A stretch of 64,000 nt of DNA. Origin: Planococcus sp. PAMC 21323 (GTDB lineage: Bacteria > Bacillota > Bacilli > Bacillales_A > Planococcaceae). The stretch lies in contig NZ_CP009129.1 in NCBI RefSeq assembly GCF_000785555.1, positions 2,418,001 to 2,482,000 on the forward strand, written 5' to 3'. Shown piece after piece: positions 14,819 through 30,166 of this stretch. The notes under the pieces are model-generated. The model was given only the letters and a program-made list of their open reading frames with translations. It made no database searches and was not told the DNA's origin. The number at the start of each line of letters is the position of its first letter. Position 1 is the stretch's first letter. The position numbers and the translations under genes are program-made.

Positions 14819-14821
14819 TTT

Positions 14822-14850
14822 TTAAAACGGACTTTTTAGTCCGTTTTTTT
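14822..14850 (+). terminator. Terminator of the amidase gene
   Basis: AAAACGGACT-tttt-AGTCCGTTTT followed by more T, directly after the stop codon. Confidence 0.9.
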
Positions 14851-14893
14851 GTTGTATACTACAGGAAAGTGTAATCTTTCAGGAGGGATTCTA

Positions 14894-16543
14894 TTGAAAA
14901 AATTATCAGTTTTAGCAATCTCTGCGCTCCTTATCAGTGGATGGGCCAGTAGCAATGCCTCCGCTGAAGCCAATGATGCTTCAGATCGCGTGATCATTTC
15001 ATTTAAAGAACGCATCGACTATGACTTGCTCGAAGAAATGGGCGCTGAAATTCACGAGGAATTTGATGCCATTTCTGCAGTTTCTGTCACCTTGCCTAAT
15101 GATCAATTGGTTCAAACCGCTAGCAACGATTCCTCTATTAAATACGTAGAGGAGAATTCAATCGTTACCGCAGCTGGTCAAACGACTACTTGGGGCTATC
15201 GGGCGATTAAAGCGAATACCGCATCGAGTCTCGGTTACACGGGTAAAGGAATAAAAATTGCTATAATCGATTCAGGAATTAATTCTAAGCATCCAGACTT
15301 GAAAGTGGTAGGTGGCGTTTCCAAAGTTGCGAATTCAAGTGCTTTTACAGATGGTAACGGACATGGTACTCATGTGGCTGGTGTTATCGGTGCACAAAAC
15401 AATTCAGTTGGTACCGTTGGCGTTGCTCCAGATTCATTAATTTACTCAGTTAAAGTTTTGTCAGCTAATGGCGTTGGCACGTTGGACGGTGTTGTTGCCG
15501 GCATTCAATGGGCGATAGATCAAAAAGTCGACATCATCAACATGAGCTTGACGACAATTAACGATGACCAGGCTTTACGAGATATTACGAAAAAAGCGTA
15601 CGAAGCTGGCATTGTTGTGATTGCCGCATCTGGAAACGAACGAGAAAAAGGTCTTTATAAAGATGTTCTCTATCCAGCACGTTTTTCTTCTGTTATTGCT
15701 GTTGGATCTGTTTCTAAACTTAATAAGCTTTCTTATTTCTCAAATTATGGGGCATCACAAGAACTGGTAGCACCTGGAGAAGGCATTTTAAGTAGTTTTA
15801 CTGATTCCAAAACAACATCAAATGCCGATTATGCGGTTTCTGAAGGAACATCTGTTGCGTCTCCTTTTGTTGCTGGTACGTTTGCGCAATATATGGAAGC
15901 CTATCCGCATCTATCTAACACGCAATTACGTGAAACTGTTAAACGAGCAGCACTTGATCTTGGTGTTAAAGGACGCGACAACACGTACGGAAACGGACTG
16001 GTTCAATCGCTGCAAACCAAAGCCGCATTGTTCCCCGATTTGAAAAATGATGTATGGTACACACTGCCAATCAAAAAGAACTTTGATCGTGGCATTATCA
16101 CTGGCTTCCCTGACGGAACATACCGTCCCGAAGCGACCATTACACGCGCTGAAGCCGTTACCATGCTTGGCCGTGCACTAAAGTTGAATAAAACCAATAC
16201 CAATCACCATTTTAGCGACGTACCAAAAGATTCGTTTGCAGCTGGCTATATAAACAGCGCGTATGAATTGGGTTATATCAAAGGGGTCAATGCACGCGAA
16301 TTCCGACCAAACGATCCAATCAAACGTGGCGATATGGCAATTATCATGCAAGCTGCATTTAAGCTTGCTGGTACTCAACAAGCTGGCTTTAAAGATGTTC
16401 CAACATCTATGTATTATTACGACGCGATCCAGGCTGCCTATGCAAGTAACGTCGTCAAAGGCTACGCAGACAACACATTCCGACCGAAAAAACCAATCAC
16501 ACGCGCAGAAAGCGCTGAAATTATGAACAATGCATTGAAATAA
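14894..16543 (+). CDS. SLH-anchored subtilisin-like serine protease (S8)
   Basis: 549 aa. I take TTG 14894 (LKKLSVLAIS) as start because AGGAGGG lies 6 bp upstream; the open frame runs back to 14849. Signal peptide to ASA (~24), inhibitor I9 propeptide (~30-90), then the S8 domain (~105-360). The complete triad is visible: Asp in IIDSGI, His in GHGTHVAG, Ser in GTSVASP, plus the oxyanion Asn in ASGNE. Three C-terminal SLH repeats (~370-549; ITRAE, IKRGD, ITRAE) hold it at the cell surface. Likely nutritional or processing protease; targets unknown. It follows the amidase terminator, so it needs its own promoter in a 43-bp gap. Confidence 0.93.
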   Translation: MKKLSVLAISALLISGWASSNASAEANDASDRVIISFKERIDYDLLEEMGAEIHEEFDAISAVSVTLPNDQLVQTASNDSSIKYVEENSIVTAAGQTTTWGYRAIKANTASSLGYTGKGIKIAIIDSGINSKHPDLKVVGGVSKVANSSAFTDGNGHGTHVAGVIGAQNNSVGTVGVAPDSLIYSVKVLSANGVGTLDGVVAGIQWAIDQKVDIINMSLTTINDDQALRDITKKAYEAGIVVIAASGNEREKGLYKDVLYPARFSSVIAVGSVSKLNKLSYFSNYGASQELVAPGEGILSSFTDSKTTSNADYAVSEGTSVASPFVAGTFAQYMEAYPHLSNTQLRETVKRAALDLGVKGRDNTYGNGLVQSLQTKAALFPDLKNDVWYTLPIKKNFDRGIITGFPDGTYRPEATITRAEAVTMLGRALKLNKTNTNHHFSDVPKDSFAAGYINSAYELGYIKGVNAREFRPNDPIKRGDMAIIMQAAFKLAGTQQAGFKDVPTSMYYYDAIQAAYASNVVKGYADNTFRPKKPITRAESAEIMNNALK

Positions 16544-16555
16544 TGTGGAAGTTGA

Positions 16556-16586
16556 AGCCCAACCGGGTTTGCCGGTTGGGTTTTTC
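16556..16586 (+). terminator. Terminator of the SLH protease gene
   Basis: CCCAACCGG-gtttg-CCGGTTGGG stem followed by TTTTT. Confidence 0.92.
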
Positions 16587-16617
16587 ATTTTGGGGGAGAT
16601 TTGGTGGGGGATTAGTT

Positions 16618-17040
16618 TAATCCGGGTGTTCGCTTTTTTTTACACGCATATTTTGGTTTTATACATGAACTTTTCGTGCTCTTACATTAACTTTTCATGC
16701 TCTTATACGAATCCTCTCAACCGGAGCTCTTTACATGAACTTTTGACACCTTTACATGAACTTTCCACTCGCTTACCTGAACTTTTTGCGCTCTTACCTT
16801 AATTTTTCATGCTCTTACATGAATCCACCCAATCCGGAGCTCTTTACAGGAACTTTCCACTCGCTTACCTGAACTTTTTACGCTCTTACCTTAACTTTTC
16901 ATGCTCTTACATGAATCCGCCCAATCCGGAGCTCTTTACATGAACTTTCTACTCGCTTACCTGAACTTTTTGCGCTCTTACCTTAACTTTTCGTGCTCTT
17001 ACATGAATCCACCCAATCCTGAGCTCTTTACATCACCTTT
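16618..17040. repeat. 21-bp phased repeat array 1 (with 92-bp higher-order unit)
   Basis: TAC-type unit starts occur at 16641, 16662, 16683, 16704, 16732, 16753, 16774, 16795, 16816, 16845, 16866, 16887, 16908 and 16937. Steps are 21 bp, with an occasional 28-29 bp unit containing CCGGAGCTCTT. Typical unit: TTACATGAACTTTTCGTGCTC. GGAGCTC-type units at 16723, 16836, 16928 and 17020 (the last reads TGAGCTC) show a higher-order period of 92 bp (first interval 113). The left edge starts with a CCGGGTGTTCGC unit as found in arrays 2 and 4. From 17041 to 17270 I see only AT-rich DNA. The array lies between convergent genes. Confidence 0.9.
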
Positions 17041-17271
17041 TGGCATATTTATTCTACTTTAACGAATTACCCTTCTCCCTTATTAGCTACCAAACTCTTT
17101 TCACTCTCCAATCCTCCTTCTACGTCTTCTTTTCACCATACTGTCAAAGTGACACGCAACCACCCCCTTCGCAGCTCGTATGCATGTTTTTAAGCGTTTA
17201 AACTATACGCTAACAATAACTGCCTAAAATTATTTCATACTTACAATATTTCACACAATCTAGCACCATAA

Positions 17272-17318
17272 AAAAACTGCAAATCACCTCGAGTAAATCG
17301 AGGTGATTTGCAGTTTTT
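17272..17318. terminator. Terminator of the SLH-NlpC/P60 gene
   Basis: CTGCAAATCACCTCGA pairs perfectly with TCGAGGTGATTTGCAG around GTAAA, flanked by A/T runs. Confidence 0.92.
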
Positions 17319-17325
17319 ATTGAAT

Positions 17326-18342
17326 TTATTTGTTAGTGATTGCTCTGTGTACAAATGCTGTGTATTCTGCACGTTTTGCATTTGCGTTTGGCTTGAACGA
17401 TCCGTCGTTGTGGCCATTCGCTAAGTTATGTGCAGCGATTGTGTTGATCGAGTTTTCAGCCCAGTGACCTTTAATATCCGTGAATGATGTTGAAGGTTTT
17501 GATGCTGATAATGCAAATGCTTTTGTTAACACTTTGCTGATTTCAGCGCGTGTAATGTTTTCATTTGGTGCAAAGTATCCTGGAGAGCGTCCGTTAACGA
17601 TTCCGGCTTTCATGACAGCATTAATGTTACCAGCTGCCCAATGTGATGCGGGTACGTCTTTGAAAGCAGAACTTTTTACAGGAGCTAGTTTTAATGCGCG
17701 CGCAATGATTGTCGCTGCTTCTGCTCTTGATACATTATCATTTGGCTTGAAGATGCCATCACCTTTACCTGTGATGATTCCTGCTACGCTTAAATCTTTG
17801 ATTTCTTTAGCTGCCCAATATCCTGAAGATACATCGTGGTATTGTCCAACTGATAGAGAAGGCTTAGAAACTGTAATTGTTTCATTTTTAACTTCATCCA
17901 GACGACGTGCGCCTGTATATTTTGGTGCCCAATACGGGTTTGTGTTTAAGTTCGCAATTGTGATTCCTTTGCTTGTAGCGGAAATAAAATCTCCATTCCC
18001 TAAATAAATTCCAGCGTGTGAAATTCCAGGTTTATACGTATCTGAAAAGAAAACCATGTCGCCTTCTTTTAAATTACTTTTACTGACGCTTGTTCCATTG
18101 TTGTACTGTTGAACAGAAGTACGGGGTATTGAAATGTCAAATTCATTGAAAACATAACGTAAATATCCAGAACAATCAAAGCCAGATGGAGTAGTTCCCC
18201 CAAATTTATACGGCGTTCCTAAGAATTTCTTTGCATATGTAACAATTTCATTTGGTGTAGCAGCACTGGCTTGTGTCGTATTGAAGGGACTAACTGATAT
18301 TAATAAAATAGCAATTATCATGAGTATTAGACGATTCTTCAC
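17326..18342 (-). CDS. SLH-domain NlpC/P60 peptidoglycan endopeptidase
   Basis: 338 aa. Signal peptide (~28), NlpC/P60 domain (~32-150), three C-terminal SLH repeats (~165-338; VSRAE, ITRAE, AKRAE). The catalytic Cys is in FDCSGYLRY and the His in SHAGIYLG. It should cleave gamma-D-Glu-meso-DAP or equivalent stem-peptide bonds, as LytE/CwlO-type enzymes do. GTG start with AGAGGTG upstream. A perfect WalR-type box lies about 104 bp upstream (18446-18462), which fits control by the WalRK cell wall regulator. It has its own terminator. Confidence 0.93.
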   Translation of the reverse strand: MKNRLILMIIAILLISVSPFNTTQASAATPNEIVTYAKKFLGTPYKFGGTTPSGFDCSGYLRYVFNEFDISIPRTSVQQYNNGTSVSKSNLKEGDMVFFSDTYKPGISHAGIYLGNGDFISATSKGITIANLNTNPYWAPKYTGARRLDEVKNETITVSKPSLSVGQYHDVSSGYWAAKEIKDLSVAGIITGKGDGIFKPNDNVSRAEAATIIARALKLAPVKSSAFKDVPASHWAAGNINAVMKAGIVNGRSPGYFAPNENITRAEISKVLTKAFALSASKPSTSFTDIKGHWAENSINTIAAHNLANGHNDGSFKPNANAKRAEYTAFVHRAITNK

Positions 18343-18445
18343 TTGGCACCTCTTTAGTTAAATTTCGGGAAGCTGATCAGGCATCTACCGTTTAATTACT
18401 TATTTAATATATTTTTGATTGTAACAGTGAAAACACGAAATTGAG

Positions 18446-18462
18446 GTTACATTTATGTTACA
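18446..18462 (-). promoter_or_regulatory. WalR (YycF)-type binding box
   Basis: On the minus strand TGTAAC-ATAAA-TGTAAC, an exact match to the WalR consensus TGTWAH-N5-TGTWAH. It sits upstream of a cell wall endopeptidase, the usual WalR target class. It overlaps the palindrome GTTACAAATGTGTAAC (18457-18472). Confidence 0.65.
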
Positions 18463-18588
18463 AATGTGTAACAAAGCATATTTATATGTTTATTTTTAGG
18501 AAATAAAAGGGATACAGTACTTACGTTTTTTCCAAATCATCTATTTCACCCGTTACATCACTTGATGAAAAATTACACGTATTACGAC

Positions 18589-18628
18589 AAAAAAAGCCCT
18601 TATTGCGCAAGCGCAATAAGGGCTTTTG
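18589..18628. terminator. Terminator of the AGCS symporter gene
   Basis: AAAAGCCCTTATTGCGC / GCGCAATAAGGGCTTTT, a near-perfect 17-bp stem with a minimal loop, preceded by an A-run (T-run on the coding strand). Confidence 0.92.
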
Positions 18629-18634
18629 ATCTTA

Positions 18635-20053
18635 TTATTTGTGGCGAGTTTCGCCTTCGCCCCAGCATTCTGTGTTTTTCAAACCGGGGATATTTTTTGC
18701 AAAAAACTCTGGGTTTTTTCCAGCTTTACGTTGGCTTGTGTAATCTTCCAGTACTTTAAAGGCGGTTTTACCAAGTAACGCAATGACAACTAAGTTGAGT
18801 ACCGCCATGAAGCCCATAAATAAGTCAGCCATATTCCAAACCAATTGAACTTGAGCAAGTGCACCGAACATTACCATCGCAAGTACACCGAAACGGTAAG
18901 CAGTTAACCATGCACTATGCGCATTGATAAATTCGATATTCGTTTCACCGTAATAGTAGTTGCCGATGATCGAACTAAAGGCAAAGAACAAAATAGCTAC
19001 TGCTAAAAAGTAAGGAGCCCAGCTACCAAGATGAACATCTAACGAATCTTGCGTCAGCAAAATCCCGATTTGTTCACTCGTTGAGTAAAGGCCTGCCAAG
19101 ATAATAATAAAAGCAGTTGCCGAACAAATAACGATTGTATCGAAGAAAACGCCTAAACTTTGAACAAGTCCTTGTTTGGCAGGATGCGAAACGTTGGCAG
19201 ATGCTGCGGCATTAGGTACAGAACCCATACCGGCTTCGTTTGAGAACAAGCCGCGACGGACACCTTGCATAATAGCAGCACCAATACCGCCGCCGATTGC
19301 TTCTTCTAAGCCGAAAGCACTTTTCACAATAAGTGTGAAGACTGCTGGAATTTCGGTAATATTCATAATGATGATATATAACGCTACGATGATGTAAATC
19401 GTTGCCATAACCGGCACGACGACTTGTGTAACTCTAGCAATCCGTTTGACGCCACCAAAAATAACGATTGCCGTTAATAAAACAAGCCCGATTCCAATCG
19501 ACCAATCTGGAATATTAAAAACGTCTTCAAATGATTGAGCAATCGTGTTTGATTGAACAGAGTTGAAAATAAATCCGAATGCTAATGTTAATAGAATCGC
19601 AAAGACAATACCTAGTTTGCGGTTACCGAGTGCTTTTTCCATGTAATAAGCAGGTCCACCACGGAATTGTTCTCCATCACGGACTTTGTAAACTTGTGCC
19701 AATGTACTTTCGACAAAAGCAGTAGCCATCCCGATGATCGCGACCATCCACATCCAGAAAACCGCTCCCGGTCCGCCAATAGCAATTGCCAGTGCAACTC
19801 CGGTAATATTCCCTGTTCCTACGCGTGACGCAGTAGAAATTGTGAAGGCCTGGAAAGCTGATATCCCGCTATCTCCATCCTTTTTTTCTGTGATTACACG
19901 GAACATTTCTCCAAATAATCGAATCTGAACAAAACGAGTGCGAACGGTAAAGTAAAGGCCAAGGCCCATAAGAAGTGCAATTAGTATGTATGTCCAAAGC
20001 AACGTATTGACGTTATCAACGAACCAGGTGATTCCATTTAAGAAAGCATCCAT
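18635..20053 (-). CDS. Alanine/glycine:cation symporter (AGCS family)
   Basis: 472 aa, about 11 membrane helices. Matches the AGCS/SSS-type amino acid carrier family (AlsT, DagA) that takes up alanine or glycine with Na+ or H+. Landmarks are 'TGNITGVALAIAIGGPGAVFWMW', the AFQAFTISTASRVG stretch and GGGIGAAIMQGVRRGLFSNEAG. I start at ATG 20053 (MDAFLNG), about 7 bp after GGGGAGA; the frame extends to 20089 without a good ribosome-binding site. Substrate not resolved from sequence. Monocistronic: terminators on both sides. Confidence 0.92.
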   Translation of the reverse strand: MDAFLNGITWFVDNVNTLLWTYILIALLMGLGLYFTVRTRFVQIRLFGEMFRVITEKKDGDSGISAFQAFTISTASRVGTGNITGVALAIAIGGPGAVFWMWMVAIIGMATAFVESTLAQVYKVRDGEQFRGGPAYYMEKALGNRKLGIVFAILLTLAFGFIFNSVQSNTIAQSFEDVFNIPDWSIGIGLVLLTAIVIFGGVKRIARVTQVVVPVMATIYIIVALYIIIMNITEIPAVFTLIVKSAFGLEEAIGGGIGAAIMQGVRRGLFSNEAGMGSVPNAAASANVSHPAKQGLVQSLGVFFDTIVICSATAFIIILAGLYSTSEQIGILLTQDSLDVHLGSWAPYFLAVAILFFAFSSIIGNYYYGETNIEFINAHSAWLTAYRFGVLAMVMFGALAQVQLVWNMADLFMGFMAVLNLVVIALLGKTAFKVLEDYTSQRKAGKNPEFFAKNIPGLKNTECWGEGETRHK

Positions 20054-20139
20054 TCTACTTCTCCCCTTTTTCAATAAACTTGTATTCAATACCCTTTTTG
20101 TTAACGCAAAAAACGTTCTTTTCCAACATATATAAAAAT

Positions 20140-20165
20140 GAGACCCTCTAGCAAAAGAGGGTCTC
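20140..20165 (-). terminator. Terminator of the M20 amidohydrolase gene
   Basis: GAGACCCTCT-agcaaa-AGAGGGTCTC, with AAAAAT just outside giving a T-run on the minus strand. It lies 70 bp beyond the stop. Confidence 0.8.
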
Positions 20166-20234
20166 GGATGTCGGCTTTATTATTTTATCATGTGTTTTTC
20201 TCATATAAGAATTTTTAGTATTTTAAGTTTTTTC

Positions 20235-21329
20235 TTATTGAGTTGCTTTCACGGTATTTGCTAACACGCGCGCACCTATATCAAGCGCCTCGTGGTTAAA
20301 GCTCATGTTTGGATGGTGAAGTCCCGGTGTTAAATCAGCACCAACACCAATCATCGCTGCATGCAACTCAGGCTTTTTAATCGTGTAAAAATGAAAATCG
20401 TCAGCGCCGGTCGTATGAACGGGTGCCGCGGGTGCCACGTCTCCTAAAGTTTCACGAATCGCTGCATCCGCAATTTGCATCGCTGTTTCTGATACTTCAG
20501 CGGCTGGTGTGTAATCCGTCCATTCGAACGCAATTTCAACTTCGTGTAATTTTGCTATGTTGGCTAACCCATCGTTAATTTTTTGCTGAAGATGTTTCAT
20601 CAATTCGTTCGACTGCGAACGAACATCCATCGCAAAATTTGCGCTTCCTGGAATGATGTTCAAGCTGTCGCCACCTGTTTGAATATGCGTAAGCTTTGCC
20701 GAATACGATTCAAACGGAGAGAAATAAATAGATTTCACGAATTGATGAATGGCTGCAATCACGTCGATGGCATTTTTCCCTTGGTGCGGACGTGCCCCGT
20801 GCGCATCAACTCCCGTAATTTTCCCTCTTAAGAAAATTCCCGACCCGTGATGAAGTGCAGGTGTTACTTGACCAAATGGCAATTCTTCAATTGGTCGGAG
20901 GTGTACGCCGTATAAATGCGACACTTCATCAATTGCTCCGCGCTCAATCATCGAAAGTGATCCGTTGCCTACCTCTTCTGCTGGTTGAAAAATAAAACGT
21001 ACTCGTTTCGTCAGTTTTTCATCTTTTAAATACAGCAATGCGCCAAGCACCATCGACATATTGGCATCGTGTCCGCACGAATGATTGGCTTGCAATTTGC
21101 CATCGACTTCTTGCCAAAGCGCATCAATATCTGCGCGCACCGCCACCACTTCTTTCCCCTCACCAATTTCAGCAATTAAACCTGTCACATCTGGAAACGT
21201 GTGATGTTTCACACCTAGTTCCGTCATGATCGCTGCTAGTTTTTTGGTCGTTTCGACTTCTTGCCAACTCACTTCTGGATGTGTATGAAAATGGTTAAAA
21301 TACTCAAGTATTTGCTGCTCGATGTTCAT
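20235..21329 (-). CDS. M20 family amidohydrolase
   Basis: 364 aa, the usual size of the HipO/YxeP-type N-acyl-amino-acid amidohydrolases. Metal ligands are recognisable: HPEVSWQE near the N-terminus, Cys-His in NHSCGHDA, Glu-Glu in PAEEVGNG, His in YGVHLRP and C-terminal His in LHHPNMSFNHEA. It should hydrolyse an N-acyl or amide bond in a small metabolite in the cytoplasm. Strong AAAGGAGA site before ATG 21329. Monocistronic. Substrate unknown. Confidence 0.88.
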   Translation of the reverse strand: MNIEQQILEYFNHFHTHPEVSWQEVETTKKLAAIMTELGVKHHTFPDVTGLIAEIGEGKEVVAVRADIDALWQEVDGKLQANHSCGHDANMSMVLGALLYLKDEKLTKRVRFIFQPAEEVGNGSLSMIERGAIDEVSHLYGVHLRPIEELPFGQVTPALHHGSGIFLRGKITGVDAHGARPHQGKNAIDVIAAIHQFVKSIYFSPFESYSAKLTHIQTGGDSLNIIPGSANFAMDVRSQSNELMKHLQQKINDGLANIAKLHEVEIAFEWTDYTPAAEVSETAMQIADAAIRETLGDVAPAAPVHTTGADDFHFYTIKKPELHAAMIGVGADLTPGLHHPNMSFNHEALDIGARVLANTVKATQ

Positions 21330-21427
21330 ATGATGGTCTCCTTTGGGTTGATGGATATACTTTAATAGTTTGATTGTACAGGAGCGGGGTGGATTTAAAT
21401 AGATTGTGGGTTTGATTGGGCTTATGG

Positions 21428-21580
21428 CTTACCCGGGTGTTCGTTCGTGTTACCCGGGTGTTCTCTCTTTTTATCGAGATAGATCTGGCTAACCCGGGTG
21501 TTTGTTCGTGTTACCCGGGTGTTCGCCCGCTTTACCCGGGTGTTTGCACTTTTTATCGAAATGGTGCTGGCGTTTACCCT
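21428..21580. repeat. 21-bp phased repeat array 2
   Basis: Units begin at 21430, 21451, 21472, 21491, 21512, 21533, 21554 and 21575: steps 21, 21, 19, 21, 21, 21, 21. Main unit TACCCGGGTGTTCGTTCGTGT; every third unit is a TATCGA variant. It abuts the 3' end of the NERD gene. Confidence 0.9.
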
Positions 21581-21582
21581 TT

Positions 21583-22539
21583 TCACTTATGAAGTGGGTG
21601 ATAGATATATTTACGATGTTTGCGTCCACCTACTGGCTGACAATTGTTGTTAAGTAGAAATCGTTTAGCCGTTTCTAAATTTTTGAATCCGATAAAATCA
21701 CGACATTCGGCTGTGTTAATGGTGGGTTTTATTAGCATAAACCATTCTTGTAGCGTTACAACATGGGCATTTCTGCTGACGAGTCTGCACGTTTCGCATT
21801 CCCAGGCTATTTGAGTTCTGATCATTTTCCCGAAATGGCAACGTGGACAAAAAACGCCTGTTTCGATTTCAGTTGGGTTGATTTGAAATTTGGGAGCGAG
21901 CGGAAAAGGTTGATAGTCTTCATGTGCTGCGAGGAGTGCGTTACCGAGCTGGTGGAGTTCTTCAATAGAAATGATTGTCTTTGACAAATTTAATTTAGAA
22001 AGGTAAAAGTTGAGTTCACCTACTGCTAAAATGTGGGAATCTGGTGGTGTGTTTTCAACAATTTGCGAAGGGTGCGATATAACGATAATGCTAAAGATAG
22101 GCAACTGGCATCTCAGTGTTCTCAAAAATTTCCCCATACGCATCACCGTTTCGTTCATTTGTGTGATGGGACTTTTATAGCTCCTAATTTCTCCATCTGG
22201 CAAAACAGAATGGAGCGCGCTTGGATTTTGTTTGAATTGAAGCTTCCCTGTAATGTTTTTGACTTCAAGCAAAATCACACAGCTTTGTGTAATCAAAACG
22301 GTATCGACCTGTAACTTGTACGGTGCGGGCAATGAAAAATCTTGGATAAGTTGGTATGCATAAGGTGGGTCGAAAAAGTCGAGCGCTTCGTCTAACCGCT
22401 CTTCACCACCAAAACCCGCTCTCGCATTGTTAAGACTATTTTTCACTGCAGCACGTTTGGGATGAGTAGGTGAAATTCTCTTTAATAACGCTTCATAACC
22501 TGCAATTTTAGCTGGTTTTTCCCGGTGTTTAATAATCAT
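21583..22539 (-). CDS. NERD (nuclease-related) domain protein
   Basis: 318 aa. The NERD domain (~40-160) shows the nuclease-like signature: GGEERLDEAL, then 'LQVDTVLI' and 'ILLEVKNITGKL', where Asp, Glu and Lys are the putative catalytic residues. The C-terminal half has a CPRCHFGK / CETCRL four-Cys zinc ribbon (~225-255) and a final region containing EWFMLIKP. NERD proteins are thought to process DNA, but the cellular role is unknown. Strong GGAGGGAG site before ATG. Stands alone; repeat array 2 follows its stop. Confidence 0.88.
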   Translation of the reverse strand: MIIKHREKPAKIAGYEALLKRISPTHPKRAAVKNSLNNARAGFGGEERLDEALDFFDPPYAYQLIQDFSLPAPYKLQVDTVLITQSCVILLEVKNITGKLQFKQNPSALHSVLPDGEIRSYKSPITQMNETVMRMGKFLRTLRCQLPIFSIIVISHPSQIVENTPPDSHILAVGELNFYLSKLNLSKTIISIEELHQLGNALLAAHEDYQPFPLAPKFQINPTEIETGVFCPRCHFGKMIRTQIAWECETCRLVSRNAHVVTLQEWFMLIKPTINTAECRDFIGFKNLETAKRFLLNNNCQPVGGRKHRKYIYHPLHK

Positions 22540-22769
22540 AGACTCCCTCCTTTTTTATTAGTTTAGCAGGTCTTCAAGGTTTTTGCCATTTATATCCAAA
22601 TTTCATTTTTGATGTGAATATACGGAGCAAATATTGTATTTGGAGTGAGTGAGTCGGCATTTCTATTTGAAATTTCTATAAAAATGACTCTCATCCACCC
22701 CCCAAAAACCAATATGCCCAAGAACGGCTTTTCGCCAGCGAAAAGCCCCAAAACATGAGCGATCTTCTT

Positions 22770-22872
22770 TATACATGACCTTCCTCCGCTTACCCGAACT
22801 TTTGAGCTCTTTACATGAATTTTCCGCACTCTTACATGAATTTTTTATTTCTTTACATGCATCCACTCCCCA
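22770..22872. repeat. 21-bp phased repeat array 3 (hybrid units)
   Basis: Units start at 22772, 22791, 22812, 22833 and 22854 (19, 21, 21, 21). The second unit, TACCCGAACTTTTGAGCTCTT, joins the TACCCG start of arrays 2 and 4 to the AACTTTT body of array 1, so the sequence classes are related. 22540-22770 shows no gene. Confidence 0.85.
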
Positions 22873-22905
22873 TCCGAACTCAATCTCTTTAAAGCAATCC
22901 CAACA

Positions 22906-22932
22906 AAAAAAGCCGCCTTAATGGCGACTTTT
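22906..22932 (-). terminator. Terminator overlapping the rocB stop
   Basis: AAAAGCCGCC-ttaat-GGCGACTTTT; the stop codon lies in the loop region, so the hairpin starts within the last codons. Confidence 0.7.
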
Positions 22933-24531
22933 CACGGGTATTGAAAGAATCATTTCTTCTAGTAGTACCGGCATTTCTTCGAATGTGTTTTTGATGTGCA
23001 AGCGTTCTGTGCGTTTATGCGCATCTTTTCCGTAAGGGCCGACGTTTAGGACGGGTGCCTTGAGCTCTTTCATGGCTTGGAATGGAATGCTGTAGGAATC
23101 GCCGTAAACGGGTGTGTTGTTTTCGTAAGCGATCCATCCGTCACTTTGGTCGTTATAGCTGACGTAGCTCAAGTCTGAGATGCCGTTAAAGTAATGACCT
23201 TGTTTAACATCGAGGTCGAATTTTTGTTTGGCATTTGTTGTGACTTGTTCGACGCAACGTTTAACGAGTTCGTTTTCGGATGAATTGACGGATGGGTAAT
23301 AAGGTGGTGCAAACATTAATACCATTGCCGGCGTCAATTCTTGGCAGTTGATCAGCAAGATGTCTGTGACGTGCATTGATTTTTCGCGAATGTCTAAATC
23401 AGGCATTATTAATGTGTCGTGTAATAAGTCTGTGATGTAGTCGTGACCGAATTTATTGCGTGCGTATTCCATTAGTTTTTCGTAGCGCATAACGTTGATT
23501 CCGCCGACTGGTTCGATGTTTTCACGTTCGCACATGGCGTGGTAGTCACGTTCGCAATGAGCTGCGGCTTCGATTGCGATGTTTTCGAAAATGTCGAAAA
23601 CTTCTTCTGCGTTGCGTTCCATCGTGAAGACGTTGTACATCGCTGAAGTGCGGTATGGCGTTTGTGCTGAGTATTCTAATTTCATATCACGTTGCGTTAG
23701 TGTTACTGGCAGAGGTGTGGTTTCTCCGTAAACGACTTCTTTAAAGCTGGTGTTCCACTCCATGCGATGAGTTAAGTATGTTGAGATATAGCTTGATGTG
23801 ATGCCTGATAAAGGTTCCCCAACATGGGTTTCTTTGCCATAAAACAAAGCGGATGGCATGATTTTCCCAATAGATCCTGTATATAAATAATGAGATGTAT
23901 CTCCGGGTTTCATTCCAAAGACAGGTTCACCGTTTAAGAATAAAATATATTCTAAACCGTGCTCACGCTCAAGGTCAAGTAATCGGGAAGCACCGTAACG
24001 CATACCTGCTGAGTTTACCTCTTCGTCTGGAACGGTTAGAAGCAACAAATTAATTGGCCATTTTTCGATAGAGGCTTTTTCAATTAATGACATATGAAGC
24101 GCAAGTCCCGCTTTCATATCCATCGTGCCGCGGCCGAATAAGTATTCGTCTGAATCAAGGTCCTTTAATGTGTCCGCATCTAGTTCGTCACGAATACGTT
24201 TAAAAGCTTCGCCTAATTCTTTCGGGCTGCATGCTAAAGGTTCCAAGTCGCCATATTCCCCTGTGTGAACCGTATCAAAATGACTTAGTAAGACAATGGT
24301 TTCAACAGCTTCAGGATGTTTATAAAGAGCTGTCACGCTTTGGCGTCCCCAATTCACTTCTCCCATGCCAATATATTGTGGGTTTTCTTGAAAATATGGC
24401 AGCTCCATCAATTTGTCTTTTAACTTATAAGCAAACTCTACTTCTCCATCTGTTAAGGTCATGCTTTTCCAGCTGACAAGTTCACATAATAATTCCTGTA
24501 ATTTCTCTGGCGTTCCCCATAATGTGGCCAC
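22918..24531 (-). CDS. RocB-like M20 family peptidase
   Basis: 537 aa, the long form of the M20 family exemplified by RocB of the arginine utilisation regulon. Landmarks: LLSHFDTVHTGEY, LFGRGTMDMKAGLALH, TVPDEEVNSAGMRYG and the C-terminal 'NVGPYGKDAHKRTERL'. Probably a cytoplasmic zinc amidohydrolase; the biochemical activity of RocB itself is not well established. GTG start with GAGGAG upstream. No roc or arginase genes are nearby, so a link to arginine breakdown is only by homology. Confidence 0.88.
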   Translation of the reverse strand: MATLWGTPEKLQELLCELVSWKSMTLTDGEVEFAYKLKDKLMELPYFQENPQYIGMGEVNWGRQSVTALYKHPEAVETIVLLSHFDTVHTGEYGDLEPLACSPKELGEAFKRIRDELDADTLKDLDSDEYLFGRGTMDMKAGLALHMSLIEKASIEKWPINLLLLTVPDEEVNSAGMRYGASRLLDLEREHGLEYILFLNGEPVFGMKPGDTSHYLYTGSIGKIMPSALFYGKETHVGEPLSGITSSYISTYLTHRMEWNTSFKEVVYGETTPLPVTLTQRDMKLEYSAQTPYRTSAMYNVFTMERNAEEVFDIFENIAIEAAAHCERDYHAMCERENIEPVGGINVMRYEKLMEYARNKFGHDYITDLLHDTLIMPDLDIREKSMHVTDILLINCQELTPAMVLMFAPPYYPSVNSSENELVKRCVEQVTTNAKQKFDLDVKQGHYFNGISDLSYVSYNDQSDGWIAYENNTPVYGDSYSIPFQAMKELKAPVLNVGPYGKDAHKRTERLHIKNTFEEMPVLLEEMILSIPVKSRH

Positions 24532-24670
24532 GGCTTTTCACTCCTCTAGTTGCTTAAAGCTATTTATCTATCTTGTTCTTATTATAGTTATTTGTTGCCC
24601 AAATAAAAAGAGGATGAGAAAAAAATCCTATATTCGAAACAAAATAACTTTCTATCGACATTATTCCATA

Positions 24671-24703
24671 AAAAAAACGACTCAAGGTGAGAGCCGTTTT
24701 TTA
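24671..24703 (-). terminator. Terminator overlapping the EamA gene end
   Basis: AAAAAACGACTC-aaggt-GAGAGCCGTTTTTT; includes the stop codon. Confidence 0.7.
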
Positions 24704-25596
24704 CGTTTCTTCAATATGTCCTCTGCTGCGCCGGAACCAAATAGTACACCAATTACAATGAGCACTAATCCAAATATGTGACCAGAGGTAATTTTTTCAT
24801 TTAATAATACACTTGCTCCTACTAATGAAAATAAGGTGTTCAAGTTCATAAAAATCGCCGCTTTTGTTGGTCCTGCCTGTCCAATTGAGTAATTGTACAG
24901 CATATGGCCAACTGCTGTCCCGAGCATTGCCGAGAATACAAAAGCGATCCAAAATGACGTTGGCGCTGCCGCGAATGCTGCAATTTCGCCTGGTTCTTGT
25001 ACGAGGGAAATGATAAACAATACGAGTGAACCAATTACAAACATATAGCCTGTCAAAATGCGCGGGTCGAGTGTACGCGCTGCATTAGCGATGACAATAT
25101 AGCTCAACACTTGCGCTAATATAGAAATGAAAACAAAGATATCCCCTACGTTTAACCCTGAGGTAGCCCCACTGCCAACCATTACAGTAGCCGCGACTCC
25201 AGCAAAGCCAACGACCACTCCGAGCCATTGCAGTTTAGAAGGGTAATTGCGCATAATGAGCGAAACGAGCACCGCCGTTAACATCGGTCCCGTCCCTAAA
25301 ATCAATCCTGCATTTGAGCCGGTCGTGATCGACAAACCACTGGATAAGAAATAATGATGGGCCACAACATTGAGTAGCGAGCCGAGAACAATAAACTTCC
25401 ATTCACTTTTGGCGGGCCAACGTAACATTTTTATACTTGCGAGTATAGCCATTACGGATAATCCCGCTAATAAAATACGAAAAGCTGTTAAGGTAACCGG
25501 ATCTACGTATCCCAACATGTATTTGACGGCTGATAAATTAAAGCCCCAAACAATCATTACAGCCGTTAAGATGCCGTAAATTTTCCATTTATTCAA
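24682..25596 (-). CDS. EamA/DMT family transporter
   Basis: 304 aa, ten predicted membrane helices in two EamA repeats (~8-140 and ~155-290). Typical start ('VMIVWGFNLSAVKYML') and a basic cytoplasmic tail KKRKKR. Drug/metabolite transporter superfamily member, probably a small-molecule exporter; substrate unknown. TTG start, 8 bp after GAAGGTC. Separated by 37 bp from panF upstream, so cotranscription is possible. Confidence 0.9.
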   Translation of the reverse strand: MNKWKIYGILTAVMIVWGFNLSAVKYMLGYVDPVTLTAFRILLAGLSVMAILASIKMLRWPAKSEWKFIVLGSLLNVVAHHYFLSSGLSITTGSNAGLILGTGPMLTAVLVSLIMRNYPSKLQWLGVVVGFAGVAATVMVGSGATSGLNVGDIFVFISILAQVLSYIVIANAARTLDPRILTGYMFVIGSLVLFIISLVQEPGEIAAFAAAPTSFWIAFVFSAMLGTAVGHMLYNYSIGQAGPTKAAIFMNLNTLFSLVGASVLLNEKITSGHIFGLVLIVIGVLFGSGAAEDILKKRKKRLSP

Positions 25597-25633
25597 TCGC
25601 CAGACCTTCTTTCGACTTTCCGTAGAGAAGTCC

Positions 25634-27085
25634 TTATTTTAAATTGTATTGATAAGCTTTTCTTTCGATTAATAAGCTAAAGACGATAAAGGCTACGAGT
25701 GACAATAACACAGGCACCGTTACCGTATGTACGCCCAATAAATTGCCATTTTCGATATTGTAAAAATGGATCGCAATATAGCTGAATATCCCCGTTGCCA
25801 TTGAAGCAATCGCTCCATATTTATTGCCCCATTTCCAATACAAACCGAGAACAATCGGCCAAATAAATGCCGCTTCTAGTCCACCAAACGCGAATAAATT
25901 CAAGAAAATAAGCAGCTCTGGTGGATTTAAGGCCAGCAAGAAAACAATTATGCCTAGTATACCGGTAACGCCAAACGAAATCCGTTTAATGGTTTTGATC
26001 GTGGCATCGGGTTTCACGTAATTCAAGTAAACGTCTTTTACAATCGACGAACTAACAAGTAGTAATAGAGAATCGACTGTAGACATAATCGCAGCCATTG
26101 GAGCAGCGAGTACGATTCCTGCAACCCACGGCGGCAAAGTTTCAAGTGCGATGAGCGGAATAACTTTATCACCAATTTCAATTCCTGGCATTACGGGACG
26201 TGCAAAAACACCGATTAAATGCATATTGAGCATAATAAACCCGGTAACAAACGTACCGATAATTAATGCACGGTGCATCGAACGCGAATTTTTATACGAC
26301 ATGGCGCGCACCGCAATTTGCGGCAAGCCAACAACGCCGACACCAACAAGAATCCAAAATGATGATACGTAAGCTGCCGTTAAATTACCGTCTGCACCAA
26401 ATGGCGTCACCAAGTTTGGGTTTTCATTGATCAAATCATTGACGATGTTTGGTATACCGCCACCTGCGATAATGACTGCAATCAATAAAACCAGTGTCCC
26501 AACGAGCATGACCGCTCCTTGCACTGCATCCGTTAGGGCAACTGCACGGAATCCCCCGATGGTTACATACACCAGCACACTCACTGCAAATAAGAACAAG
26601 GCCGAATTATACGATAAGCCCGTTAAAGATTCGACGAGACGTGCGCCGCCAATCCATTGTGCAGCCATCGCTGAAAACAAGAAGACGATAATACTAAAAG
26701 CAGACAGCAACACCACAATCGTACTATTGTATCGAGCTTTCAAAAAATCAATCATCGTAATCGCTTTATAGCGACGCGCCATGATGGCGTATTTCTTCCC
26801 GAGAATCATTAACACGAAATAGCCTGTTACCACTTGGGCCATGGCGAGCAATACCCAGCCGAATCCCATTGTATAGGCCGTTCCAGGTCCACCTAGAAAA
26901 CTAGATGCACTGCCATATGTCGCGACCATTGTCATAGCGAGTACAAAGCCACCAAGTTCACGACCACCTAAAAAATAATCACTAATAAAATTTGATGAAC
27001 TCGCCAGTTTACGGCTTGACCAATAGCCGATAAAAAAGATAATTAATAAAAAAGCGAGCATCGGGACTAAAACCGCGTAATTCAT
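25634..27085 (-). CDS. panF: Sodium/pantothenate symporter
   Basis: 483 aa, 13 membrane helices, sodium:solute symporter family. 'SDYFLGGRELGGFVLAMTMVA' is the SSF signature region, and the closest subgroup I recognise is PanF, which imports pantothenate (vitamin B5) with Na+. The start overlaps the yhdT stop by ATGA. The YhdT-PanF pair is a conserved arrangement across bacteria and supports the PanF call. Confidence 0.9.
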   Translation of the reverse strand: MNYAVLVPMLAFLLIIFFIGYWSSRKLASSSNFISDYFLGGRELGGFVLAMTMVATYGSASSFLGGPGTAYTMGFGWVLLAMAQVVTGYFVLMILGKKYAIMARRYKAITMIDFLKARYNSTIVVLLSAFSIIVFLFSAMAAQWIGGARLVESLTGLSYNSALFLFAVSVLVYVTIGGFRAVALTDAVQGAVMLVGTLVLLIAVIIAGGGIPNIVNDLINENPNLVTPFGADGNLTAAYVSSFWILVGVGVVGLPQIAVRAMSYKNSRSMHRALIIGTFVTGFIMLNMHLIGVFARPVMPGIEIGDKVIPLIALETLPPWVAGIVLAAPMAAIMSTVDSLLLLVSSSIVKDVYLNYVKPDATIKTIKRISFGVTGILGIIVFLLALNPPELLIFLNLFAFGGLEAAFIWPIVLGLYWKWGNKYGAIASMATGIFSYIAIHFYNIENGNLLGVHTVTVPVLLSLVAFIVFSLLIERKAYQYNLK

Positions 27086-27351
27086 CGAACGTCCTCCTCT
27101 TCATCAAATGGTACTTCTACAAAGAAGAACTTCACGATGACGACAACTAACACGGAAATCAGTAAAAAGCCGACCACGCAACTATAAAAAAACCAATCTG
27201 GCAAGCCGAAGACATAACTATATTCTTCAACTGGACGCGAACCTAAACCGTAAGCAAAACCAAACCACCAAACAAAATTAAAAATGGCCAAACCAACGCC
27301 AATCCATGCTTCTCGATGAGCTATTTTAAAACGCCAATCCGTTTCTTCCAT
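27082..27351 (-). CDS. yhdT: YhdT family (DUF997) membrane protein
   Basis: About 89 aa, two membrane helices. The start MEETDWRFKIAHREAWIGVG and the WWFGFAYGLG motif are YhdT-typical. Partner of PanF; its own job is unknown. ATG 27351 is 8 bp after GGAG; a GTG at 27360 is also in frame. Acidic C-terminus (EEEDVR) just before the overlapping panF start. Confidence 0.9.
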   Translation of the reverse strand: MEETDWRFKIAHREAWIGVGLAIFNFVWWFGFAYGLGSRPVEEYSYVFGLPDWFFYSCVVGFLLISVLVVVIVKFFFVEVPFDEEEDVR

Positions 27352-27447
27352 CACATACACTCCGTTCGTCCATTTTTCATAATCTCCATCTATCGTACAC
27401 TATTGCTCGCTCTAGATTAACCCCATTGACTCGCTTTTAAACAGCTA

Positions 27448-27477
27448 AAAACCCGAAAGCCATGGCTTTCGGGTTGA
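27448..27477 (-). terminator. Terminator of the adaptor-protein gene
   Basis: AACCCGAAAGCC / GGCTTTCGGGTT, perfect 12-bp stem with an A-run outside (T-run on the minus strand). Confidence 0.9.
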
Positions 27478-27484
27478 TAAGTTA

Positions 27485-28783
27485 TTAACGTGCCAGTAAA
27501 TATTCGACGTATGCACGCCAATAGGTGTTTTTAGCAACTTCGAAATCAGGTTGACGACTCGGGAAAGGCATAAAGACTTTTGGAGGCGCTACAAATTCTT
27601 CAAGTTTCTCTTCATGAATCACAATCGTGCCAGCTTCAGGACCTTCTGACAACACTGCCTTCGTTCCTTTTTCAAACTCTGTAGTAACGGGCACCATTTT
27701 TGGACGACCGTTAATATTTAAAGTATGAGCTTTGCCGACTTTCCCGTCATAATCAAACAACCAAGGTGTTGGAAGTGCTACAGCATTGTCAGCTGTTTCT
27801 AAGGTGATTGCTGTATTGACGTTACTGCCAAACGGTAATGTATTATCCACCGGCAATTCAACCACGATTTGTATTTCATAAAATGCGAGCGGATTGTTTT
27901 GTTCTTTTGGATCTAGTTGATGGTAAGCTTCAAGCCATTTTGATTTTTCAGCAGGTACTTGAGAAATACGTTGAACTGTTCCTTGAACAATGCCATCTAT
28001 GCCTTCACCTTGAATATTAACAGGATCTGCAACTTGAACTAATGGCCATTCATCCTCGAGAACGTAGCTGAGAAATACTTTTTCATTTGAATAAATTTCA
28101 ATGCTTAGTGGTTCTGTATTTCGATTAATTTTAGATACAACACCATCTACTGGGCTAATGACTGATGGATTTGAAGGACTTTGAGCTAATTGTGCTTCTA
28201 ATACGGCTAATTGTGCTTCGATAGAAGCCAGTTCTTGTTCAGCTTGAGCGATGCCTGCAGCATATGAACCGTCTTGTGGTACTGCGACTCCGACTGAAAC
28301 ATTCACATCAAAATCAATGACTTCATCATCTTCATTCGTAATTTGAGAATTATTAGACGCATCGCGCGAGACGACCCCGCCTTGAGCCGCTCTAGCTTGT
28401 TCAAGCGTAGTAAGCGAACTGTTTACTTCATTTCGCTGACCTTCTAGCGCCGTTTTTTGTGTTTCCCACAATGCTCGCTGACCTGCTGTTTCTGCTTCAT
28501 TTAAAACAGCAAGTTCCGACCCAGCGGATACCGCTTCGCCTTCTTGAACCGTCCATTGTTGAAGTGCTTCGTGATCTTGCACATAAATTTCCAAAGTTTC
28601 TTGCGGCGCCGTCAATGCTTCTTTAAATAAATCGATGTTGTATGTACTTGCGTAAGCTTGTTCGTAATCGCTAACGTACACACTTTTCGGCAAAATGCTT
28701 TTCTCACCAAACATAAGTAGGGCATTTGCTGTCAAAAAAGCCACAACCGCGATGGATAATCCCACAAAATAAAACCTATTCAA
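27485..28783 (-). CDS. HlyD/RND-type membrane fusion (adaptor) protein
   Basis: About 432 aa. An N-terminal membrane helix is followed by a lipoyl-like half ('QQWTVQEGEAVSAGSELAVL'), a coiled-coil hairpin (~110-215, long Gln/Glu/Ala runs), a second lipoyl half (SPVDGVVSKI) and a beta-barrel region (~230-400). This is the layout of periplasmic adaptor proteins which, in Firmicutes, join an ABC or other exporter. No ATPase or permease is beside it. TTG 28783 has GGGGGA 7 bp upstream; ATG 28798 is the alternative. It overlaps the upstream membrane gene, so the two are coupled. Confidence 0.8.
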   Translation of the reverse strand: MNRFYFVGLSIAVVAFLTANALLMFGEKSILPKSVYVSDYEQAYASTYNIDLFKEALTAPQETLEIYVQDHEALQQWTVQEGEAVSAGSELAVLNEAETAGQRALWETQKTALEGQRNEVNSSLTTLEQARAAQGGVVSRDASNNSQITNEDDEVIDFDVNVSVGVAVPQDGSYAAGIAQAEQELASIEAQLAVLEAQLAQSPSNPSVISPVDGVVSKINRNTEPLSIEIYSNEKVFLSYVLEDEWPLVQVADPVNIQGEGIDGIVQGTVQRISQVPAEKSKWLEAYHQLDPKEQNNPLAFYEIQIVVELPVDNTLPFGSNVNTAITLETADNAVALPTPWLFDYDGKVGKAHTLNINGRPKMVPVTTEFEKGTKAVLSEGPEAGTIVIHEEKLEEFVAPPKVFMPFPSRQPDFEVAKNTYWRAYVEYLLAR

Positions 28784-29468
28784 AAAGATTTCCCCCATTC
28801 ATAAAGCCGCTCAGCATATCGTCCGTAGGAATCAAACTAAACGATGCAACCACTAAAGCCACTAAAATATGGAGCATAATCAAGCCAAATAAAATTAGTT
28901 TCGGATTGATTTTTGTAAAGCTACGGATAAATCGGTATTGTACCGCAATAATTAATGACGTGAAAATCGTCAGTTGATTAAAGAAATAAATCAAATATTG
29001 ATGATCTAAGAACGTTGCAGCAATCGGTCCAAACGAGAAAATCGATACCGACATCGCAAAGCCGGTCAATGCAAACAATAGGAAAATTAAACCTTTTTCA
29101 ATAATTAGCAAAGCAACCACATACAGTTGCATAATAAGCGCTGCTCGCCAAGCTACTTTTACAATTTTGTTGAATAAAAAAGCCGCTCCATAAAGATGAA
29201 AAGCCAAATAAAAGCCTGCCCAGAGAAGCGTACCAACCAGAGAAGTCCAGCGCGCTAATGTATAAGCATCCCACATTCCTGCCGCCAGAATTGGCGTTAA
29301 TGAATCGGTATTCATGCCCCAAATTTCACCCAGAGCAAATACCAATAGGCCAATCGCAAAGATCCATGCAATGCGTTTATTAACATCGCGCATTTCTGTC
29401 GTTTTTATATTATGTATAAGTTGACCTTGTCTTGGGAAAAAGTGCCAAAATCTGAAGTCTGATATCAT
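28776..29468 (-). CDS. Multi-pass membrane protein of unknown function
   Basis: About 230 aa with five or six membrane helices. The N-terminal cytoplasmic segment contains RFWHFFPRQG. The layout recalls Yip1-type proteins such as B. subtilis YknW, which accompanies the adaptor YknX, but I cannot confirm a Yip1 domain by eye. ATG 29468 follows AAAGGAACT by a normal distance; an in-frame TTG at 29486 is less likely. First gene of a two-gene unit with the adaptor protein. Function unknown. Confidence 0.75.
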   Translation of the reverse strand: MISDFRFWHFFPRQGQLIHNIKTTEMRDVNKRIAWIFAIGLLVFALGEIWGMNTDSLTPILAAGMWDAYTLARWTSLVGTLLWAGFYLAFHLYGAAFLFNKIVKVAWRAALIMQLYVVALLIIEKGLIFLLFALTGFAMSVSIFSFGPIAATFLDHQYLIYFFNQLTIFTSLIIAVQYRFIRSFTKINPKLILFGLIMLHILVALVVASFSLIPTDDMLSGFMNGGNLFE

Positions 29469-29630
29469 GCGAATAGTTCCTTTCAAGGCAATTGACGTTC
29501 TGCTTCACTATACTTTACCAAAAAAGTGTCATCTTTGGAACGCATTAGATGGGACAATCTTCAATATTTAAATCGTTTGAGCCAAAAGATATAGAATTGC
29601 GGTTGAACGGGAGCGTTGCGGTTGGTTTTG

Positions 29631-29806
29631 CTTACCCGGGTGTTCGGTTTGCTTACCCGGGTGTTCGCCCTTCTTATCGAGATCTACCTCGCTTACCCGG
29701 GTGTTCATTTTTCTTACCCTTGTGTTCGCTCGCTTTACCCGAGTGTTCGCTCCCCTTACCCGGGTGTTCGCCCTCCTTATCGAGATCCCCCCACTTTACC
29801 AGGGCC
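29631..29806. repeat. 21-bp phased repeat array 4
   Basis: Units start at 29633, 29654, 29675, 29694, 29715, 29736, 29757, 29778 and 29797: steps 21, 21, 19, 21, 21, 21, 21, 19. TACCCGGGTGTTCGC units alternate with TATCGAGATC units, and the shorter 19-bp step always follows a TATCGA unit, as in array 2. It lies 3' of the DUF2187 gene. Confidence 0.9.
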
Positions 29807-29813
29807 CACAATA

Positions 29814-29843
29814 AAAAAAGCTGCTCACGAGGAGCAGCTTTTG
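29814..29843. terminator. Terminator of the DUF2187 gene
   Basis: AAAAGCTGCTC-acga-GGAGCAGCTTTT with an A-run outside. Confidence 0.88.
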
Positions 29844-29853
29844 CTTTATCAAA

Positions 29854-30081
29854 TTATGCTTCGATAATACGGTATTTCTTATGTGAAATTACGGTCATGT
29901 TGGATGCCGCACCAATTTCTTTTGCGTCTTCTGGTGAAATTTCAACAATCACCGAGTTGTCCATAATTTTAAAAATGGTGCCGTTAACATCGACTCCGTT
30001 ACGAGTGAAAGAAATCCATTCGCCTATGTAGCGTGCTGCTACGAATTCTGATACTTCTTTTTCATGGGGTTGGAAAGCCAT
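29854..30081 (-). CDS. DUF2187 family protein (YkvS-like)
   Basis: 75 aa small cytoplasmic protein. The pattern 'YIGEWISFTRNGVDVNG..', 'NSVIVEIS' and 'TVISHKKYRII' is the DUF2187 (YkvS, KOW-like) signature. It may bind nucleic acid through its small beta-barrel, but the function is unknown. ATG 30081 is preferred, with GAGAGG 10 bp upstream; GTG 30090 is too close to the site. Own terminator; repeat array 4 follows it. Confidence 0.85.
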   Translation of the reverse strand: MAFQPHEKEVSEFVAARYIGEWISFTRNGVDVNGTIFKIMDNSVIVEISPEDAKEIGAASNMTVISHKKYRIIEA

Positions 30082-30166
30082 CAATACCACGCCTCTCTTT
30101 TTAAAACGCTATCTGCCTATTATAGCACAAATTACCTTCTCTTTCATCTTTAAAGAAACGCAGCAT

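What the first reader, a model, noticed from the sequence alone, without database searches (positions are those of the whole stretch)
16618..29806. A 21-bp phased repeat family in four intergenic arrays
Arrays at 16618-17040, 21428-21580, 22770-22872 and 29631-29806 share a strict 21-bp step (two helical turns). Each unit begins with TAC or TAT and has a short palindromic core (ACCCGGGT, ACATG, ATCGA). Sequence between cores varies freely while spacing is kept, as expected for a row of protein-binding sites or phased DNA bends, not for slippage repeats. The hybrid unit TACCCGAACTTTT at 22791 ties the sequence classes into one family. I know no described family with this form.
Basis: partly seen in the sequence, partly recalled or inferred. 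Interest (0 to 1): 0.75.

Follow-up and report, generated by a model that had tools for sequence, protein, structure and literature searches.

The report
Phased DNA arrays paired with NERD nucleases
Rows of 21-letter DNA sites between genes in Planococcus bacteria appear to be the matching sites of neighbouring nuclease-like genes whose DNA-reading ends change together with the sites, which points to an undescribed bacterial DNA-recognition system.

Summary
The four arrays are real. In this Planococcus genome the two-unit pattern occurs 33 times and its reversed control 0 times. Units have a conserved 14-bp motif and a free spacer; between duplicated blocks, change is 9-fold rarer in the motif. 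Steps are mostly 21 bp; breaks are mainly 18/19 or 29 bp or their sums with 21, giving 102/103- or 92-bp blocks. Similar blocks occur in other genera with unrelated motifs. Other species hold arrays in the same gaps, sometimes with the motif replaced unit by unit.

The gene between arrays 2 and 3 encodes a NERD nuclease-like protein with a zinc ribbon and winged-helix tail. Its flanks show a 21/42-bp signal in 23 of 27 species. Three other NERD paralogs of this genome each have an array with its own motif. Motif similarity tracks the tail, not the nuclease part. NERDs lacking the tail lack arrays in 5 of 6 loci.

Best reading: each such NERD protein recognises its own phased array. Binding, cutting and role are untested. 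Nine literature searches found no description.

The parts
16618..17048 (+). Array 1: 19 units, class A-like first unit then class B (TTACATGAACTTTT-type); 92-bp superunits (3x21+29) from 16750
21429..21582 (+). Array 2: class A units (TTACCCGGGTGTTC) with 19-bp short unit TTATCGAGAT...; lies at the 3' end of the NERD gene
21583..22539 (-). NERD1: 318-aa NERD nuclease-like protein with C-terminal zinc ribbon and winged helix; proposed cognate factor of the arrays
22075..22416 (-). NERD (PF08378) domain of NERD1, residues 42-155, with invariant D79, E92, K94 (PD-(D/E)XK pattern)
   Evidence: coordinates computed from residue numbers
21787..21849 (-). Zinc ribbon of NERD1 (C231, C234, C248, C251)
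   Evidence: read from the cysteine pattern
21601..21768 (-). Winged-helix tail of NERD1 (residues 258-313; third helix 288-297 holds R293)
22597..22643 (.). Imperfect inverted repeat CCAAAT...ATTTGG between NERD1 and array 3; similar sequence upstream of NERD1 in species whose flanks were printed
   Evidence: read by eye; the output was cut
22726..22747 (.). Hairpin GGCTTTTCGCCAGCGAAAAGCC just outside array 3; hairpins of this form recur beside arrays in other species
   Evidence: read by eye
22751..22872 (+). Array 3: class B and hybrid A/B units, upstream of the NERD gene
29632..29795 (+). Array 4: class A units and 19-bp short units; the orthologous arrays in G014 and G015 are class B with the same layout

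Best explanation
The arrays are rows of recognition sites for a neighbouring NERD-family protein. NERD1 (window 21583-22539) joins a PD-(D/E)XK-type nuclease-like domain, a zinc ribbon and a C-terminal winged helix. Each 21-bp unit (two helical turns) would take one NERD protein through its winged helix, in one direction and on one face, so an array loads a head-to-tail row. Genomes hold several NERD paralogs, each reading its own motif, and motif and winged helix change together over evolution. SHOWN by computation: the arrays, their phasing grammar, motif conservation, conserved array sites with turned-over motifs, NERD genes flanked by arrays with paralog-specific motifs, a predicted winged-helix tail, and motif/tail co-variation. 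INFERRED: physical binding, head-to-tail loading and nuclease activity. GUESSED (about 0.3): the arrays, kept near gene 3' ends, are docking tracts that hold or control the nuclease on the chromosome for DNA processing such as defence or repair.
For: Motif conserved against spacer: 21 changes in 891 motif positions, 86 in 396 spacer positions. NERD1 flanks: best lag 21 or 42 above the shuffled 99% level in at least one flank in 23 of 27 species, motif and lag left free. NERD genes taken by homology alone: 6 of 6 carry phased copies by reading, each lineage with its own motif; the scan supports 5 of 6. In 294 kb of this genome the three paralog motifs were not found in tandem away from their own genes. 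L345 and its relative L302 share GGACAGTATTT; L300 and L301 share GTTGGGCATA. Motif similarity follows winged-helix identity given nuclease-part identity (partial Mantel 0.27 and 0.34, P 0.00025), but not the reverse (0.08 and -0.04, P 0.14 and 0.65). Among the 12 closest NERD1 orthologs, 4 class A-only species have His at position 293 in the third helix and 7 of 8 Arg293 species have class B. Model pLDDT 91.7 with a helix-helix-helix-strand-strand tail. NERDs whose profile match stops before the tail: 1 of 6 flanked. Arrays in other genera lie beside a tail-bearing NERD in 4 of 39 loci, about 0.2-0.3 expected.
Against: No binding or cutting data. G002 has Arg293 yet only class A was found; G000 carries both classes with one NERD1; G006, G029 and G045 have His at this place with a third motif. 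G020's six generic YTAC matches were not read, so 'class A only' is not fully checked there. G002, G028, G034 and G018 pass no threshold beside NERD1, and two flanks pass at other lags (G017 at 40, G020 at 31). An over-strict coding mask, which also removes arrays because they are often stop-free, leaves 17 of 27 NERD1 loci and 2 of 6 paralogs (P = 0.008). The scan hit of L301 was coding and is replaced by a 3-unit array seen by eye; still held that hit and a coding hit of L300. NERD count and array count correlate only moderately (rho 0.37-0.43) and share phylogeny. L350 has an array beside a NERD without the tail.
Confidence: 0.66

Rival explanations
1. The arrays are bound by an unrelated nucleoid or terminator-associated protein; NERD genes merely lie in array-rich, fast-changing regions.
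For: Arrays cluster regionally (G000 7 of 58 gaps against 1 of 47, the one being coding; G014 12 of 46 against 0 of 38; regions were chosen by their arrays) and 45 of 49 border at least one gene 3' end.
Against: NERD paralogs outside the array regions each have their own array and motif; motif tracks the winged helix and not the nuclease part; NERDs without the tail mostly lack arrays.
Confidence: 0.17
2. The arrays are products of NERD nuclease action: cutting and repair copy and extend a seed site, so the system spreads like a selfish element and the arrays need no host function.
For: Superunits expand by whole 102/103- or 92-bp blocks; in G000 all listed matches lie within about 100 kb of NERD1 or in a second region on the other arm; single class A units are seen at the NERD1 locus in G002 and G028 (by eye).
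Against: Block copies differ mainly in the spacer while the motif stays, which points to selection on the site; NERD1 and array sites are kept in place across many species.
Confidence: 0.12
3. Satellite-like repeats from replication slippage, or an RNA element.
For: Tandem form; class A arrays fold better than shuffles as RNA (z -2.4 to -5.3).
Against: Spacer free but motif fixed; class B arrays show no excess fold (z -0.2 to -1.0); no Rfam match; unit-by-unit motif replacement with the layout kept.
Confidence: 0.03

Closest known systems
Plasmid iterons and their Rep proteins (recalled)
   Same: Direct repeats of about two helical turns, one polarity, replicon-specific motif, winged-helix reader.
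   Different: Here the arrays are chromosomal, intergenic and at many loci; no Rep family among the ten genes scanned around them; the companion has a nuclease-like domain. The small plasmid-like contig of this genome has 22-bp repeats with another motif.
Plasmid centromere arrays (ParR-parC; AspA of pNOB8; recalled, AspA also a weak fold match)
   Different: No partition gene among the ten genes scanned; nuclease-like partner; many chromosomal loci.
REP/BIME repeats with RAYT or gyrase (recalled)
   Same: Intergenic, near gene 3' ends, species-specific sequence.
   Different: The unit is not an inverted REP pair; direct 21-bp phasing with free spacers; the partner proposed is NERD. RAYT genes were not searched.
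NERD domain proteins (Grynberg and Godzik 2004; cited in PMC9040797, of which I saw passages)
   Same: The companion is a PF08378 member.
   Different: PMC9040797 says that, to its authors' knowledge, the domain had not been studied in any bacterial protein before; arrays are not mentioned in the passages seen. Here a subfamily with a winged-helix tail goes with phased arrays.

Membership tests
NERD (PF08378) | Match over Pfam's curated cut-off | tested here: met
   NERD1 45.9 bits against cut-off 22.1; paralogs L344, L345, L182, L190 likewise
PD-(D/E)XK nucleases | D...E-x-K catalytic pattern | tested here: met
   D79, E92, K94 invariant in 59 sequences and in 15 diverse ones
PD-(D/E)XK nucleases | Fold | tested here: inconclusive
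PD-(D/E)XK nucleases | Nuclease activity | not testable with these tools
   Needs purified protein
Winged-helix DNA-binding domains | Three helices followed by a beta wing | tested here: met
Iteron origins | Replication initiator gene beside the repeats | tested here: not met
   Pfam scan of ten genes around arrays 1-4 shows no Rep family
CRISPR arrays | About 23-50-bp identical repeats with about 30-bp spacers and cas genes | tested here: not met
   21-bp units with roughly 4-9-bp free spacers
Known RNA families (Rfam 15) | Match at gathering score | tested here: not met
   0 matches in window 13000-31000
Known anti-phage systems (PADLOC 2.0.0) | Model match of NERD1 | tested here: not met
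   0 families at E 0.1
REP/BIME | RAYT (IS200-like) partner and inverted REP pairs | not tested
   No search for RAYT genes was made

The most novel reading that the evidence does not exclude
A previously unrecognised class of chromosomal recognition system, spread over Planococcaceae and probably Bacillaceae. Each member of a multi-copy family of winged-helix NERD nucleases reads its own motif in arrays phased at two helical turns, built from 102/103- or 92-bp blocks (about 10 or 9 turns at 10.25 bp per turn).
Probability: 0.4. Interest if true: 0.93.

Novelty: categorically new. Interest (0 to 1): 0.84.

Why it matters
NERD is a widespread domain whose function in bacteria is almost unstudied (passages of PMC9040797). 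If each winged-helix NERD has a cognate phased array, its substrate becomes known at once and testable by one binding experiment. The families offer many natural reader-site pairs, with a candidate specificity residue (293), for learning how a DNA-binding protein and its sites change together. The phasing grammar (21, 18/19, 29 bp) predicts the geometry of a nucleoprotein row.

Tried and rejected
RNA structure as the shared property: rejected, class B arrays do not fold beyond shuffles. Flank-to-flank hairpin ends: own flanks pair no better than mismatched flanks of the same genome (mean 14.1 against 14.9; 16 of 49 higher). Viral or plasmid origin: class A and class B exact dimers found 0 stretches in viral contigs; array 1 and NERD1 found no match among plasmids; phage records were not searched. 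A single species-wide motif: rejected, G045 and G032 hold several motif families at different loci (by eye). A-tract bending as the common cause: rejected on the motifs of class A and other arrays. Arrays beside every NERD: rejected, 5 of 6 NERD loci of the other type have none. Random stretches of other genera (400 kb) gave 0 noncoding lag-21 loci and 1 of 124 gaps, so outside Planococcus the arrays are sparse and were found by pattern. The reversed-pattern control is high in some other genera (for example G163, G260, G292), so its counts there are not clean evidence; several of its loci (for example L184, L188, L192) look coding. In one search, exact matches outside Planococcus were in metagenome-assembled contigs of distant groups and were not followed. 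Family widening through viral contigs failed. The class B expression had a wrong gap length and its zero is ignored. The Fisher test '6 of 6' counts L301, whose scan hit was coding. Literature searches were seen as search listings only; of PMC9040797 I saw passages.

Full report
OBSERVATION. In the host genome (3.2 Mb; genus Planococcus by named relatives) a two-unit pattern allowing both classes gives 30 forward and 3 reverse matches at up to 1 mismatch and none for the reversed pattern. At up to 3 mismatches it gives 46 matches against 3; the 46 fall in 2.344-2.448 Mb and 0.487-0.503 Mb. They hold 53 listed arrays with 496 steps, of which 388 are 21 bp. The other frequent steps are 18/19 (18), 29 (13) and 39/40 (46, a unit joined to its short neighbour; eight 27+12 pairs are the same thing).

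UNIT ANATOMY. Over 441 units the first 14 positions are conserved (5, 6 and 10 less so), positions 15-18 are near random and 19-21 are pyrimidines. Comparing 99 pairs of units one superunit apart, 21 changes fall in 891 conserved motif positions (nine positions per unit) and 86 in 396 spacer positions, a 9-fold difference. Slippage alone does not predict this. Superunits are 102 or 103 bp (4x21 + 18/19), or 92 bp (3x21 + 29). In arrays read in other genomes with other motifs, 305 of 337 steps are 21 and 18 are 18/19; the rest are 22, 24, 30, 39, 41 and 42. Blocks of 103 (G059, and G012 in Planococcus), 206 (G293) and 93 bp (G050) recur, while several others keep exact multiples of 21. These lengths are near 10 and 9 turns of 10.25 bp; that this is a physical constraint is my inference.

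SURROUNDINGS. Arrays border at least one gene 3' end in 45 of 49 cases; 4 of 49 are in divergent gaps against 49 of 220 gaps of 100 bp or more (genes by a simple ORF rule; orthologous arrays counted apart). The upstream flank is G/T-rich and the downstream flank C/A-rich. After terminators next to arrays GC skew is 0.57 (n = 20) against 0.09 elsewhere (n = 135). The flanks do not pair with each other. Class A arrays fold as RNA, class B arrays do not.

SAME PLACES, OTHER MOTIFS. Flanking-gene comparison shows arrays in the same gaps across species with different classes. Array 4 is the clearest case: G000 has class A where G014 and G015 have class B, with the same order of long and short units. 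Class A dimers (up to 3 mismatches) occur in 10 of 46 genus genomes and in 0 of 215 other family genomes. A generic YTAC pattern at 21-bp steps matches 157 of 261 family genomes in 17 of 19 genera with many motifs, but its reversed control is also high in some genera, so I use only loci that I read.

THE COMPANION GENE. Arrays 2 and 3 flank a NERD gene. I searched it in the 46 genus genomes (41 with a match) and scanned both flanks in the 27 best loci with motif and lag free: 23 of 27 have best lag 21 or 42 above the 99% level of shuffles in at least one flank; without the window's own genome this is 22 of 26. Two flanks pass at other lags (40 in G017, 31 in G020). The motif differs between species groups (read by eye; its output was cut). 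I then took NERD paralogs by homology alone: three in this genome (L343-L345; a fifth NERD match of this genome was not read) and three in genomes without a close NERD1 (L300-L302). By reading, 6 of 6 have phased copies beside the gene, with their own motifs: GCAAACAAA on both sides of L344; GGACAGTATTT at L345 and at its relative L302; GTTGGGCATA at L300 and L301; CGCCYGCAAAT at 20-bp steps at L343. The scan value reported for L301 came from coding DNA; its array is three units seen by eye, so the scan supports 5 of 6. In 294 kb of this genome the three paralog motifs were not found in tandem away from their own genes. A strict coding mask, which removes many arrays because they are stop-free, leaves 17 of 27 and 2 of 6, the latter still above the background of 2 of 143 gaps (P = 0.008). 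Genus genomes with at least 3 NERD genes show two or more array matches in 21 of 30; those with fewer, in 1 of 16. Rank correlations in three genera are 0.37-0.43 and hold after genome size in the two tested; phylogeny is not removed, and arrays with other motifs are missed by these counts.

CO-VARIATION. Motif 7-mer sharing follows winged-helix identity: 0.00 below 40% identity and 0.52-0.56 above 85%. Given nuclease-part identity the partial Mantel correlation is 0.27 (33 loci, two of them with coding hits) or 0.34 (21 loci, strict mask), P 0.00025; the converse is 0.08 (P 0.14) and -0.04 (P 0.65). Partial Mantel tests can be too lenient and do not model a tree. Among the 12 closest NERD1 orthologs, the species in which only class A was found (G020, G028, G034, G041) have His293 in the third helix, and seven of eight Arg293 species have class B; G002 is the exception. 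Three of the seven (G012, G017, G038) show the CTAC form, read. G000, G012 and G017 have Arg293 and both classes, which I read as class A relics. More distant NERD1 proteins follow no simple His/Arg rule (G006, G029 and G045 have His with a third motif).

MECHANISM AND LIMITS. The best-supported reading is a reader-site pair: a NERD protein with a winged helix, loading in one direction on one face of phased arrays. Binding, cutting and role are not shown. The conserved catalytic pattern suggests an active nuclease; docking for DNA processing such as defence or repair is a guess. A second array cluster lies on the other arm (dnaA is at base 1 of G014 and G030; listed clusters at 0.59-0.63 Mb and about 0.69-0.80 Mb from the origin; those lists were capped). 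Spatial spread through arm alignment would fit, but an old inversion would too.

NOVELTY. Rfam, PADLOC and nine literature searches gave no description of NERD proteins paired with phased arrays; the library held is partial. I rate it categorically new as a system, with parts (nuclease fold, winged helix, direct-repeat arrays) that are known kinds.

Noticed in passing
44444-44826: Tandem array of a 122-bp unit, about 3.1 copies, 68% matches, unrelated in step to the 21-bp arrays.
   Followed up: no
22726-22747 and flanks: Hairpin (C)TTTTCGC..GCGAAAAG recurs beside arrays in several Planococcus species, with varying arm sequence (by eye).
   Followed up: partly
22597-22643: Imperfect inverted repeat CCAAAT..ATTTGG upstream of NERD1, similar in species printed; possible operator or promoter element.
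   Followed up: no
L199 (G000 contig C2, 3364 bp) 3117-3190: Small contig, probably a plasmid: two longer ORFs that look like replication and mobilisation genes (by eye, not scanned) and three 22-bp direct repeats whose motif is not an array motif.
   Followed up: partly
14849-16543 and 17326-18342: Array 1 lies between two convergent genes for S-layer-homology proteins (a subtilase and an NlpC/P60 enzyme).
   Followed up: no
L343 2012-2112: The array of one NERD paralog runs at a 20-bp step rather than 21.
   Followed up: no
G000 0.49-0.50 Mb and 2.34-2.45 Mb; similar in G014, G030: Array clusters lie on both chromosome arms at comparable distances from the origin.
   Followed up: partly
L323, L328, L321, L333: Within one genome (G045, G032) different array loci carry different motifs at about 21-bp steps.
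   Followed up: partly
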